Of a stretch of DNA of 25,041 nucleotides, positions 2,677 through 18,357 are shown in pieces. The DNA lies in IMG/VR virus record IMGVR_UViG_3300001970_000082, positions 1 through 25,041 of that record; one strand, 5' to 3'. A program made the translations under genes and the position numbers. The notes beneath the pieces are model-generated. The model saw nothing but the letters and a program-made list of their open reading frames with translations. It was not told the origin of the DNA and did no database searches. Positions within the stretch are counted from its first letter, which is position 1; every line of letters begins with the position of its first letter. Source of the stretch: a virus.

Positions 2677-3600
2677 ATGGCCGCATACGGACAAGGATCG
2701 CGGAGCCGACTGTCCTACGTCGTGGAGTCTTCGTTCGGCACGACGCCGGGCGGCCCCACGATGCTGTCGCTTCCGTTCAACACGCATTCCCTCGACCTCG
2801 TGAAACAGCGCGTGCAGGGTAATGAAATCCAGCCCGACCGGATGCCGCGCGTTGACCGTCACGGCAATCGCAACGGGCAGGGAGACATCACCGTCGATCT
2901 GCGCGCTACCGACTTCGATGAGCTGCTTGAATCCGCCTTCCTCGATACGTTCGGGACCTCCGGCGCGGATAGCCTGGTCATCGGTACGACCCCGCAATAT
3001 CTGACCATCGAAGACGCGCAGCTTGACCTCGGCACGCCGCAATATCGCCAGTTCACGGGCATGACGGTGAGCCAGATGAGCGTCAATATTGCACCTAACC
3101 AGATGGTGCAAGCGACGTTCTCGATGGTCGGACAGGACATGGAAATGTCCACGTCTACCCTCGGCACCCCTGTCGCCGCCTCTGGTAACGAGCCGTTCGA
3201 TTCCTACTCGGGTAGCATCAGCGAGGGCGGCAGCCCTATCGCTATCGTCACCGGGCTTCAGTTCACGCTGACTAACAGTTTCGCTCCGGCCTTTGCGGTC
3301 GGGTCGGCAACGGCTGCGCAGCTTGAGCTTGGGCGCGCGGTGGTCGAAGGCCAAGTGACGGCGTACTTCGAGGATGCCGCCCTCATCAACAAGTTCCTGA
3401 ACGAGACGGAAAGCTCGATTTCCGTCACCCTGGACGACACGACTTCGGGCGAGACGTACACGTTCCTTCTGCCGCGAGTCAAGTACAACGGAGCGTCCGT
3501 GCCGGTCCAGAACGAACAGAGCCGCATCATCACGCTGCCGTTCGTGAGCCTGTACGACACGTCCGAGGCGACTAACCTGAAGCTGACGCGAAGCGCCTAA
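2677..3600 (+). CDS. major tail protein (tail tube)
   Basis: This 307-residue protein has the opening typical of phage tail tube proteins, GSRSRLSYVVESSFGTTPGG, then a long beta-rich body with GDITVDLRATDFDELLESAF and a C-terminal ITLPFVSLYD strand. It matches the Phage_tube_2 type of tail tube protein. Hexamers of such proteins stack to form the tail tube. It is placed between the terminator and the tail chaperone genes, as in HK97-like and lambda-like phages. It has the best ribosome binding site of the block (AAGGAG, eight-base spacing), which fits a protein needed in many copies. A hairpin lies just after its stop. Confidence 0.85.
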   Translation: MAAYGQGSRSRLSYVVESSFGTTPGGPTMLSLPFNTHSLDLVKQRVQGNEIQPDRMPRVDRHGNRNGQGDITVDLRATDFDELLESAFLDTFGTSGADSLVIGTTPQYLTIEDAQLDLGTPQYRQFTGMTVSQMSVNIAPNQMVQATFSMVGQDMEMSTSTLGTPVAASGNEPFDSYSGSISEGGSPIAIVTGLQFTLTNSFAPAFAVGSATAAQLELGRAVVEGQVTAYFEDAALINKFLNETESSISVTLDDTTSGETYTFLLPRVKYNGASVPVQNEQSRIITLPFVSLYDTSEATNLKLTRSA

Positions 3601-3615
3601 TCGGCGCTCTAGTTT

Positions 3616-3635
3616 GATCCGCCGCTGGGTGGATC
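3616..3635 (+). other. hairpin just after the tail tube gene
   Basis: GATCCGCC at 3616-3623 pairs with GGTGGATC at 3628-3635 around the loop GCTG, giving eight pairs including one G-T. It lies 15 bp after the tail tube stop in the 104-bp gap before the chaperone gene. No T-tract follows, so it is not a clear terminator. It could protect the 3' end of the tube mRNA or reduce downstream transcription, which would fit the stoichiometry. This is inference. Confidence 0.4.
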
Positions 3636-3704
3636 GGGGGCCGTCCTGTTGTCGGGGCAGGGCGGTCCCCACCTATCCCCGACCCCGACGACAGGAGTCC
3701 CGAC

Positions 3705-15924: not shown

Positions 15925-16209
15925 ATGACCCCCCCCAAAGACCAAACCCCAACCCCCCTCCACCCCGACCGCTCCGAAATGCTCGAAGCTCTCGATTCAC
16001 TCACCAACGACATCAAGGCGGGCCGCATACGCGGCCTGCGCTTGATCTGGGACGATGGCGAGGGCGTCGACTATGACACGCTCGGGACCTGGGATCGTGG
16101 CGGGCTGATCTATGCGATGAAGGTCGCGACGGCCGTGGACGAAGAAGCCGACCGGCTGGACCTGGAAGCGGAGATTGCGCTTTTGCGGAGTGCTGTTGAG
16201 GAGGGCTAG
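15925..16209 (+). CDS. hypothetical protein
   Basis: This 94-residue protein has a Pro/Thr-rich start, then two helices (MLEALDSLTNDIKAGRIRG; AVDEEADRLDLEAEIALLRSAVEE) around GLRLIWDDGEGVDYDTLGTW. ATG 15925 has GGAGG eight bases upstream and directly follows the methyltransferase stop. Family unknown. The stop TAG uses the palindrome CTAG, which is also the stop of the convergent HTH gene. Confidence 0.7.
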   Translation: MTPPKDQTPTPLHPDRSEMLEALDSLTNDIKAGRIRGLRLIWDDGEGVDYDTLGTWDRGGLIYAMKVATAVDEEADRLDLEAEIALLRSAVEEG

Positions 16210-16379
16210 CCTTCTCGCGCCAAGTTCCTTTTGAGCGCACGACGAATATACAAGGGGAGCGGTTGCTCCCCTTTTTTCCATGCCTGCCAGGTCGAGACCT
16301 TCACCCCGAAGATTTTAGCCGCGTCGGCTGCCGAGCCGTGGATGTGCTCGGCGGATTCGAGGAGGGACTGGTCAGACAT
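16206..16379 (-). CDS. Cro/YdaS-like HTH DNA-binding protein
   Basis: This 57-residue protein begins MSDQSLLESAEHIHGSAADA. It has a helix-turn-helix, AADAAKIFGVKVSTWQAWKKG, with the second helix being the likely recognition helix. After it come EQPLPLYIRRALKR, the arrangement seen in Cro-like and YdaS-like repressors (the position after the HTH is usually G..PP or similar). The start ATG at 16379 overlaps the possible small gene before it by 8 bp. It is the last gene of the leftward operon. It probably binds an operator to control early genes; no operator has been identified. Because it is short, it is easily missed. Confidence 0.8.
   Translation of the reverse strand: MSDQSLLESAEHIHGSAADAAKIFGVKVSTWQAWKKGEQPLPLYIRRALKRNLAREG
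16254..16277 (+). terminator. intrinsic terminator of the block 3 operon
   Basis: GGGGAGC (16254-16260), loop GGTT, GCTCCCC (16265-16271), then six T. The stem is perfect and the preceding AA can pair with the first T bases. It lies 45 bp after the last + strand gene. It is inside the convergent HTH gene, where the same bases encode the Lys-Lys-Gly-Glu-Gln-Pro-Leu-Pro stretch. Confidence 0.85.
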
Positions 16380-16653
16380 GGTGGAGCTCTAGACGGGGGA
16401 TGGTGCGGGGGAATATATCATGCTTGGAACTCCTTCCCCTCTCGGCTGATGATCTGCCCGCGCATATCCGTCGGCGCGTCGGCGTGGTACTCGAGTATGT
16501 CGCCACCTGCCACCACGGGGGCGCATCACCCGCGCATATCCGCCGGCGCGTCGGCGTGGTACTCCCCGCCCTTGAGGGCGCACGCCCGGCAGGGGCTGCA
16601 GCGCGCTCATGCGAGCGGTCCGCTGCACCGCTGGTGCCGGGCGCGTAACTCAT
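16372..16653 (-). CDS. possible small protein overlapping the repeat unit (uncertain)
   Basis: This is an open frame of 93 residues whose ATG makes an ATGA overlap with the previous stop and whose TGA overlaps the next ATG by 8 bp, which argues for a gene. Against it, the product is Arg/Ser/Pro-rich with two copies of STTPTRRRICAG, has no hydrophobic core pattern, and looks like translation of a wrong frame. In GC-rich third positions a different frame is better, giving two copies of EYHADAPxDMRG. That frame is interrupted by TGA at 16607-16609 and 16526-16528. The best reading may be a non-coding locus or a decayed gene. Confidence 0.3.
   Translation of the reverse strand: MSYAPGTSGAADRSHERAAAPAGRAPSRAGSTTPTRRRICAGDAPPWWQVATYSSTTPTRRRICAGRSSAERGRSSKHDIFPRTIPRLELHHV
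16457..16564 (-). CRISPR. CRISPR-like repeat-spacer-repeat unit (36/36/36), unproven
   Basis: A 36-bp sequence occurs at 16457-16492 and again at 16529-16564, with one difference (T at 16471, C at 16543). Exactly 36 bp lie between. In the minus direction the repeat begins GAGTACCACGCC and ends ATATGCGCGGG. Repeat and spacer length equal those of many type V arrays. It lies about 280 bp past the stop of a TnpB/Cas12-like gene, read in the same direction. No third copy is found. The 72-bp period is also divisible by three, so a duplicated coding segment gives the same picture. Confidence 0.35.
16567..16643 (-). ncRNA. candidate structured RNA next to the repeat unit
   Basis: A 9-bp inverted repeat (CGCCCGGCA 16583-16591 / TGCCGGGCG 16635-16643) encloses a 6-bp one (GCAGCG 16598-16603 / CGCTGC 16621-16626). 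That encloses a 4-bp one (GCTC 16605-16608 / GAGC 16613-16616) with a four-base loop, forming one long nested hairpin. A second hairpin (CGCCC / GGGCG, 16567-16580) stands between it and the repeat. On the minus strand the order is long hairpin, small hairpin, repeat, spacer, repeat. This is as expected for a scaffold of a guide RNA, but in GC-rich DNA some inverted repeats arise by chance. Confidence 0.33.
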
Positions 16654-16928
16654 TGGTTTGCCGTGTCCGCCTCGGCGTCACCACCGGACCGCTCGATCGC
16701 CAGCGGCGCCGTGCGCATGAGCCGGTGCGCGAACAAGCGGGCGTGCAGATCGACCTCCAGCGTCTTCGTTGCGCCATACAGCGCCTTGGCCTCTGCGGCG
16801 CCCTGATCGACGTTCACGCCACCCCCGCGGATATCGTCGGCCAGGCTCAGTTGGCGCTCAAACACCGAGCGGAAGTTCCTGGGGTCGTCCGAGACGTGAT
16901 CATATCTCACGATTTCATCGCTACTCAT
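16650..16928 (-). CDS. hypothetical protein after the TnpB-like gene
   Basis: This 92-residue protein begins MSSDEIVRYDHVSDDPRNF and continues mostly helical and polar (FRSVFERQLSLADDIRGGG; GATKTLEVDLHARLFAHRLM). ATG 16928 makes an ATGA overlap with the TnpB-like gene, so the two are translated together. No family recognised. Its tight coupling suggests a partner or regulatory role, which is inference. Confidence 0.65.
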   Translation of the reverse strand: MSSDEIVRYDHVSDDPRNFRSVFERQLSLADDIRGGGVNVDQGAAEAKALYGATKTLEVDLHARLFAHRLMRTAPLAIERSGGDAEADTANQ

Positions 16929-18115
16929 GCTGCGCACTCCTGTAGTTGCCGCCGAACTCGGCGAGATGCCTTGCGGTTCTCGACCGCCAGATTGCCGACG
17001 CTGAGCGCGTCATGCGTGGCACGCGTCAGCGGGATACCCGCCTCTGCGGCCTTGTATTCGATCATTGCCGCGCAGCCGCTCAGTCCCTGTGCCAGCACGG
17101 CCCGGTTAAACGACGCCTTCAGCTCGACCGCGCCGCCCCATTCGTATTGATCGCCGCGACCGGACGCGAGAGCGCCTGAAAGGTCGGCAGGCACCAACAG
17201 GTCAATCGCGCTCGCGCCCGCCACTAGCCTCGAAGTCCACTCATGCAGCGCTTCGCGCCGCTGCCGTCCCGCCCTCGCTTCCAGGCGCGCCTTCTGCCGG
17301 CGGAGGGCGGCGTACTCGACAGAACCGCGTGGCAGCTCGGCCATGCGCTGCTGGATCGACTCGATCCGCCGGTCGGGCGGCGGCAGTCCTACGTCCGACG
17401 CGAGAACGGGCAGGCCGTTGACCCGCGCGAAGCTGTCGATGCCGTCCAGCACCACCACGAGCGGTCGGTCGCCGGCGTCTCGGGCGCGCTCGATCTGGCA
17501 CCCCACGGACAGCCACCACGCTCCAGAATGCCAGCGTATGTCGGCGTCCGTGAGCTTGGTCGGGTCTCCAGGGAATTTGCCCCGAGCCACGATGTCACCG
17601 TCGACGCCCTTGAGCCGTAGCGCCCAGCGGGTGCCGCGCTGATGCGTCAGCTTGCATCCCGAGGCGAATCGGTGCGGCAGCCAGGTCTGTTCGCCACGGC
17701 GATAGGACCGAAATCGCGGATAGCCCGACTGCGACCCCGCGCCCTGTTTCGCCCGGCGGAAAAACGCATCGAACGCCTTCGCCAACGCGTCGGCCACGCG
17801 CCTCGGCGTCCAAGTCGAAAGCGCCTGCCACTCGGGATCGCATGCCAGAAGCTCGCTGACCAGATAGCCCATGTCGAAGCCGCTGAGATGCGACTTCGGT
17901 CCCAGCGTGTGCCTGCCTGCGCGCGTCTCCACGACCCGCACACCTCCGTCCCCGTGACACACACCGCGCTGGCCGCGTGTGCGCCGGTACTGCTCCTCCT
18001 GCATATGTAGCAGGGCGTTCCAGAGCTGGCCGACCAGCCTGCAGTGATCGCGCAGTGCGTTTTCTTGCCACGGGTCCGGGTGGAGCTTGAAGGTGTATCG
18101 GCGATTATTGGCCAT
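16925..18115 (-). CDS. TnpB/Cas12-like protein, RuvC-II Glu and zinc ribbon missing
   Basis: This 396-residue protein has TnpB architecture throughout. The N-terminal module is RYTFKLHPDPWQENALRDHC ... LWNALLHMQ. The WED/REC-like region follows with FDAFFRR and GYPRFRSYRRG (about 115-141). RuvC-I is VVVLDGIDSFA (Asp224). A long charged helix covers about 249-290. RuvC-II is DLLVPADLSG, in which Ala310 stands where Glu is expected. Then comes SFNRAVLAQGLSG..MIEYKAAEAG. A RuvC-III-like end is HDALSVGNLAVEN (Asp369). The CxxC zinc ribbon normally before RuvC-III is absent. ATG 18115 is preferred over GTG 18118. There are no insertion-sequence ends and no TnpA, and the stop overlaps the next start. 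It probably binds DNA with a guide RNA without cutting; that is inference. Confidence 0.85.
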   Translation of the reverse strand: MANNRRYTFKLHPDPWQENALRDHCRLVGQLWNALLHMQEEQYRRTRGQRGVCHGDGGVRVVETRAGRHTLGPKSHLSGFDMGYLVSELLACDPEWQALSTWTPRRVADALAKAFDAFFRRAKQGAGSQSGYPRFRSYRRGEQTWLPHRFASGCKLTHQRGTRWALRLKGVDGDIVARGKFPGDPTKLTDADIRWHSGAWWLSVGCQIERARDAGDRPLVVVLDGIDSFARVNGLPVLASDVGLPPPDRRIESIQQRMAELPRGSVEYAALRRQKARLEARAGRQRREALHEWTSRLVAGASAIDLLVPADLSGALASGRGDQYEWGGAVELKASFNRAVLAQGLSGCAAMIEYKAAEAGIPLTRATHDALSVGNLAVENRKASRRVRRQLQECAA

Positions 18116-18118
18116 CAC

Positions 18119-18202
18119 TCACACCCCACCCTTCTCGTCAGCGCGGAGGGCGGCGATGCGGGACTTGTCTTCTTCGGTCTGTTCACTTCCGTCGATGCTC
18201 AT
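18119..18202 (-). CDS. 27-residue peptide, coupled gene
   Basis: A very short, charged peptide (MSIDGSEQTEEDKSRIAAL and a few more residues). Its ATG overlaps the upstream TGA (ATGA) and its stop abuts the start of the TnpB-like gene. It may be a real micro-gene or simply serve to couple translation. No function can be read from it. Confidence 0.5.
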   Translation of the reverse strand: MSIDGSEQTEEDKSRIAALRADEKGGV

Positions 18203-18357
18203 CCCACCACCCCCACCACCACCAGGGCAGCGACAACGGCAGCGACAATGGCAGCCACAATGGCAGCGACCAGCAACACACCGCGCAGCCCCTTGCGCCC
18301 TGCGATGCGTCGGCGGGTCTCCCACGCCTCGGCGTGCTTTTCTCGGTTCGTGCTCAT
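18199..18357 (-). CDS. small single-span membrane protein
   Basis: This 52-residue product has a basic N-terminal half (STNREKHAEAWETRRRIAGRK) followed by one hydrophobic segment of about 25 residues made of Ala, Ile, Val (LLVAAIVAAIVAAVVAALVV). It should be a one-span inner membrane protein with its basic end in the cytoplasm. The segment is encoded by four 12-bp tandem repeats. ATG 18357 and the stop both make ATGA overlaps with neighbours. The function is unknown; its size would suit a holin-like or membrane-depolarising accessory, but the location in the early operon does not favour lysis. Confidence 0.65.
   Translation of the reverse strand: MSTNREKHAEAWETRRRIAGRKGLRGVLLVAAIVAAIVAAVVAALVVVGVVG
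18226..18273 (-). repeat. four 12-bp tandem repeats in the membrane protein gene
   Basis: Units beginning GGCAGCGACAAY run at 18226, 18238, 18250 and 18262 with few changes; the last unit diverges at its end. On the minus strand each encodes four small hydrophobic residues (Val/Ile-Ala-Ala pattern). Slippage would add or remove whole units in frame and alter the membrane span. Confidence 0.75.

What the first reader, a model, noticed from the sequence alone, without database searches (positions are those of the whole stretch)
16457..16643. 36-36-36 repeat-spacer-repeat with nested hairpins downstream of the TnpB-like gene
Two 36-bp copies with one mismatch stand exactly 36 bp apart. In the same transcription direction a long nested hairpin (9, 6 and 4 bp stems) and a small one precede the first repeat. 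Repeat and spacer lengths are those of type V arrays. With the TnpB/Cas12-like gene in the same operon this could be a phage mini-array or guide RNA locus. An alternative is a 24-codon tandem duplication in small coding frames. The two explanations make different predictions.
Basis: partly seen in the sequence, partly recalled or inferred. Interest (0 to 1): 0.85.

Follow-up and report, generated by a model that had tools for sequence, protein, structure and literature searches.

The report
Short duplication beside a dead TnpB
A phage carries a real pair of near-identical 36-base repeats downstream of a TnpB relative that has lost its DNA-cutting residues; the pair is probably an ordinary short duplication and not a CRISPR mini-array, though a guide RNA for the dead TnpB somewhere in this stretch cannot be excluded.

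Summary
The repeats are real: two 36-bp copies, one mismatch, 72 bp apart. A strong nested hairpin precedes them on the minus strand; it is the lowest-energy 86-nt stretch of that strand. The CRISPR reading is not supported: the repeat-spacer-repeat region folds no better than shuffles, and repeat and spacer match nothing significant. Copy R1 and the 12 codons after it look coding (z +3.1, 0 of 500 shuffles), as the end of a possible 32-codon ORF; R2 looks like a displaced copy. The 93-aa frame through both does not look coding. A relative, L031, keeps the next gene (86% aa) but has other genes upstream of its start codon, so the TnpB-hairpin-repeat block is exchangeable cargo. The TnpB-like gene (16925-18118) is real but has lost at least two of three RuvC acids and the zinc-finger domain, so it resembles phage-encoded RNA-guided repressors (TldR). 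A guide RNA in this stretch stays possible: the search for a TnpB-type guide RNA was negative but insensitive. Verdict: ordinary duplication most likely; guide locus about 12%.

The parts
16925..18118 (-). TnpB-like protein P0003 (397 aa), predicted nuclease-dead: second RuvC acid replaced, C-terminal zinc-finger/TNB domain and third RuvC acid absent
16650..16928 (-). 92-codon gene of unknown function (P0002), ATGA overlap with the TnpB-like gene, clear coding signal
16581..16645 (-). nested hairpin directly after the P0002 stop codon
16567..16580 (-). small hairpin CGCCC-UCAA-GGGCG
16529..16564 (-). repeat copy R2 (36 bp); no start codon upstream in the supported frame and TGA straight after it
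16493..16528 (-). 36-bp 'spacer', unlike its neighbours; the possible 32-codon ORF starts inside it
16457..16492 (-). repeat copy R1 (36 bp); reads EYHADAPTDMRG in the supported frame
16418..16516 (-). possible 32-codon ORF (GTG start, MVAGGDILEYHADAPTDMRGQIISREGKEFQA) running through R1
   Evidence: no homologue found
16389..16421 (-). 10-codon ORF MIYSPAPSPV with an AAGGAG ribosome-binding site, ATGA overlap with the ORF before it, TAG just upstream of the HTH gene
   Evidence: sequence
16206..16379 (-). small helix-turn-helix gene (57 aa), kept in the relative L031
16252..16273 (+). terminator-like site of the converging helicase-methylase operon

Best explanation
The 36-36-36 pattern is a recent local duplication of a 36-bp piece inside the last part of a phage early operon (minus strand), in an exchangeable cargo block that ends at the start codon of a conserved small helix-turn-helix gene. 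R1 is the resident copy, probably inside a 32-codon ORF that is chained by overlapping stops and starts to the next genes; R2 is a displaced copy in the same frame, cut off by a TGA. The nested hairpin after the P0002 stop codon is a separate feature, most likely a transcript-stabilising or pausing stem-loop. Shown: the repeats, their edges, the hairpin energy, the coding-like composition of R1 and its tail, the break of homology at the HTH start codon. Inferred: the order of duplication, that the 32-codon ORF is translated, and the role of the hairpin.
For: Two copies with sharp edges and one mismatch. Minus-strand codon usage: R1 plus tail 0.43 bits per codon, z +3.1, 0 of 500 shuffles; 32-codon ORF z +2.95; R2 with its upstream z +1.05; 93-aa frame z -0.93. 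Repeat region not more folded than shuffles. Relative L031 keeps the HTH gene and what follows (82-84% nt) but has unrelated genes upstream, without hairpin, repeats or TnpB; L007 has helicase, beta clamp and helicase-methylase and no TnpB match. Chained overlaps ATGA at 16928 and 16421 (sequence).
Against: No homologue of the 32-codon peptide in any collection searched. The one mismatch changes an amino acid in the supported frame (Ala/Thr), so there is no sign of selection on the peptide. The exact 36-bp spacing of 36-bp copies is not explained by simple slippage. The codon test uses few codons and the frame was chosen after looking.
Confidence: 0.6

Rival explanations
1. The non-coding stretch after P0002 (hairpins, perhaps with R2) encodes the guide RNA of the nuclease-dead TnpB-like protein, which would act as an RNA-guided repressor in the manner of TldR.
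For: P0003 is an intact, coding-like ORF without nuclease residues, so any function left would be binding. The strongest hairpin of the minus strand lies downstream on the same strand. Phage TldRs keep guide binding after nuclease loss, with the guide scaffold downstream of tldR (PMC13418256).
Against: The stretch is not next to the gene: P0002 lies between. The covariance model of guide-RNA ends from the nearest transposon TnpBs finds nothing (best 4.7 bits, E 3), and the conserved end GTAGTTCA is absent there. No target known. The model also missed TnpB loci at 30-35% identity, so this is weak evidence.
Confidence: 0.12
2. A type V CRISPR mini-array (two repeats, one spacer) serving the TnpB/Cas12-like protein.
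For: Repeat and spacer lengths of 36 bp; P0003 matches Cas12f/Cas12u models.
Against: The same models match an ordinary transposon TnpB far better. Repeat and spacer find no significant match; no structure beyond composition; nuclease residues lost; part of the array overlaps a coding-like frame.
Confidence: 0.03
3. The two copies are protein-binding sites (an operator or iteron pair) for the small HTH protein encoded just downstream or for a replication protein.
For: Near-identity of both copies; a 10-bp perfect palindrome TACTCGAGTA at the edge of R1; HTH gene next door.
Against: The palindrome is absent at R2. L031 keeps the HTH gene but not the repeats. No sigma-70-type promoter-like site in the region.
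Confidence: 0.12

Closest known systems
TldR, phage-encoded TnpB-like nuclease-dead repressors (PMC13418256)
   Same: TnpB homologue in a phage, RuvC acids lost (here with the zinc finger), ORF intact
   Different: No guide RNA or target identified; not adjacent to a flagellin gene; about 30% identical to the TnpBs compared; no close relative found in the collections searched
IS200/IS605 TnpB with its omega RNA (for example Aromatoleum aromaticum EbN1, L015)
   Same: About 30% identity over most of the protein
   Different: No TnpA next to it, nuclease residues lost, no conserved RNA end AGTTCA after the gene
Type V CRISPR array
   Same: Repeat and spacer length only
   Different: One spacer, no matches, no adaptation genes seen, nuclease-dead effector homologue

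Membership tests
Type V CRISPR-Cas | Two or more near-identical repeats separated by unique spacers of even length | tested here: inconclusive
   Only two copies and one spacer
Type V CRISPR-Cas | Spacer matches a foreign or host sequence | tested here: inconclusive
   No significant match in phages or plasmids; the host genome is unknown and could not be searched
Type V CRISPR-Cas | RuvC nuclease effector | tested here: not met
   At least two of three RuvC acids and the TNB domain are absent; nuclease-dead effectors are known, so this alone does not exclude
TldR (TnpB-like nuclease-dead repressor) | TnpB homologue with inactivated RuvC | tested here: met
TldR (TnpB-like nuclease-dead repressor) | Cognate guide RNA next to the gene | tested here: inconclusive
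   No match to the TnpB-type RNA model, but the model is insensitive at this distance
TldR (TnpB-like nuclease-dead repressor) | RNA-guided DNA binding and repression | not testable with these tools
   Needs RNA and chromatin immunoprecipitation
IS200/IS605 element | TnpA and transposon ends around tnpB | tested here: not met
   No TnpA among the neighbouring genes scanned; conserved right-end motif absent

The most novel reading that the evidence does not exclude
The dead TnpB-like protein uses a guide encoded right after the hairpins (R2), and the near-identical R1 72 bp downstream is its target, so the phage operon represses its own last genes by an RNA-guided roadblock.
Probability: 0.03. 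Interest if true: 0.8.

Novelty: new member of a known kind. Interest (0 to 1): 0.3.

Why it matters
As an ordinary duplication it matters little. The more useful result is the neighbour: a phage early-operon TnpB homologue that has lost its nuclease residues but kept an intact reading frame, in exchangeable cargo. If it binds a guide RNA, it would add a divergent case to the recently described phage RNA-guided repressors.

Tried and rejected
Rfam and tRNA scans of the window: nothing. Scans for relatives of P0003 and P0002 in viral and genome contigs: none; P0003 in 398 genomes of one phylum: none at E 1e-8. Degenerate DNA patterns for the R1 peptide: only unrelated frames. A blastn hit in a Klebsiella phage (E 0.02, same frame, DMRGQI) is too short to count. 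Inverted similarity between the hairpin and the P0002 end is within the range of shuffles. AlphaFold of P0003 without an alignment failed (pLDDT 45), so no fold search was made. Comparison of the sequence downstream of P0003 with the ends of transposon TnpBs by blastn gave only short matches.

Full report
Observation. Two 36-bp copies lie at 16457-16492 (R1) and 16529-16564 (R2), one mismatch, start to start 72 bp. Apart from a 12-bp tandem array elsewhere they are the only such pair in the window and are not explained by chance. Comparing the sequence with itself at an offset of 72 shows identity that begins and ends sharply at the 36-bp copies; the spacer resembles neither flank, so this is not a diverged 72-bp tandem. 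On the minus strand a nested hairpin (16581-16645) and a small one (16567-16580) precede R2. The 86-nt piece has the lowest folding energy of all minus-strand windows sampled and the second lowest after correction for G+C. The repeat region itself folds like its shuffles.

Surroundings. The window is a 25,041-bp virus record, host unknown. Minus-strand genes run from a recombination/replication set (AAA ATPase, DUF669, exonuclease, helicase) to the TnpB-like P0003, the 92-codon P0002, the hairpins and repeats, a 10-codon ORF and a small HTH gene, which converges on a plus-strand helicase-methylase operon with a terminator-like site. L031 shares the HTH gene (86% aa) and the DNA beyond it, but homology stops at its start codon and other small genes lie upstream. 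L007 shares helicase and helicase-methylase but has no TnpB match. The block with TnpB, hairpin and repeats is therefore exchangeable.

Coding or not. With codon usage from twelve window genes, P0002 (z +4.8), the TnpB-like gene (+7.3) and the HTH gene (+2.5) look coding; the 93-aa frame through both repeats does not (-0.9). The frame EYHADAPTDMRG through R1 and the next 12 codons does (+3.1, 0 of 500 shuffles), while the same frame through R2 and its upstream does not clearly (+1.05), has no start codon and meets TGA directly after R2. No relative of the peptide was found. The frame was picked after inspection, so the strength is moderate.

The TnpB-like protein. P0003 matches TnpB families and TnpB chains of solved structures by sequence, and is about 30% identical to plasmid-borne transposon TnpBs. 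In two alignments the second RuvC acid is replaced or shifted, and the zinc-finger region with the third acid is missing; the first acid is ambiguous because of a one-residue length difference. Pfam finds the TNB domain in the relatives but not in P0003. It is therefore predicted to be nuclease-dead while its reading frame is kept. This is the hallmark of TldR proteins, of which one clade is encoded by prophages (PMC13418256).

Guide RNA test. The nearest TnpBs share an RNA end, GAAAC-CC, hairpin, GG-GTAGTTCAT, at or just after the gene end. A covariance model of twelve such ends finds its own members but nothing in 16200-18200 above 4.7 bits. The motif is absent near the repeats. The model also misses TnpB loci at 30-35% identity, so the test cannot exclude a diverged guide.

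Conclusion. The pattern is most simply a short duplication at the end of a phage operon, beside an independent strong hairpin. The CRISPR array reading is unlikely. A guide RNA for the dead TnpB is possible and testable.

Noticed in passing
window 16206-16379 and L031 1841-2014: A small HTH gene is kept while the genes directly upstream are exchanged between related phages, an arrangement that recalls anti-CRISPR cassettes with their HTH regulators (weak Aca2-like Pfam match, E 0.02).
   Followed up: no
window 3591-3680: The strongest plus-strand folded stretch of the window (-56 kcal/mol per 86 nt), at the end of the minor tail protein gene.
   Followed up: no
window 16389-16421: A 10-codon ORF with a good ribosome-binding site ends in TAG in frame with, and just upstream of, the HTH start codon, which itself lacks a clear ribosome-binding site; L031 has one there.
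   Followed up: partly
window 18226-18270: 12-bp tandem repeat (3.8 copies, GGCAGCGACAAT) upstream of the TnpB-like gene.
   Followed up: no
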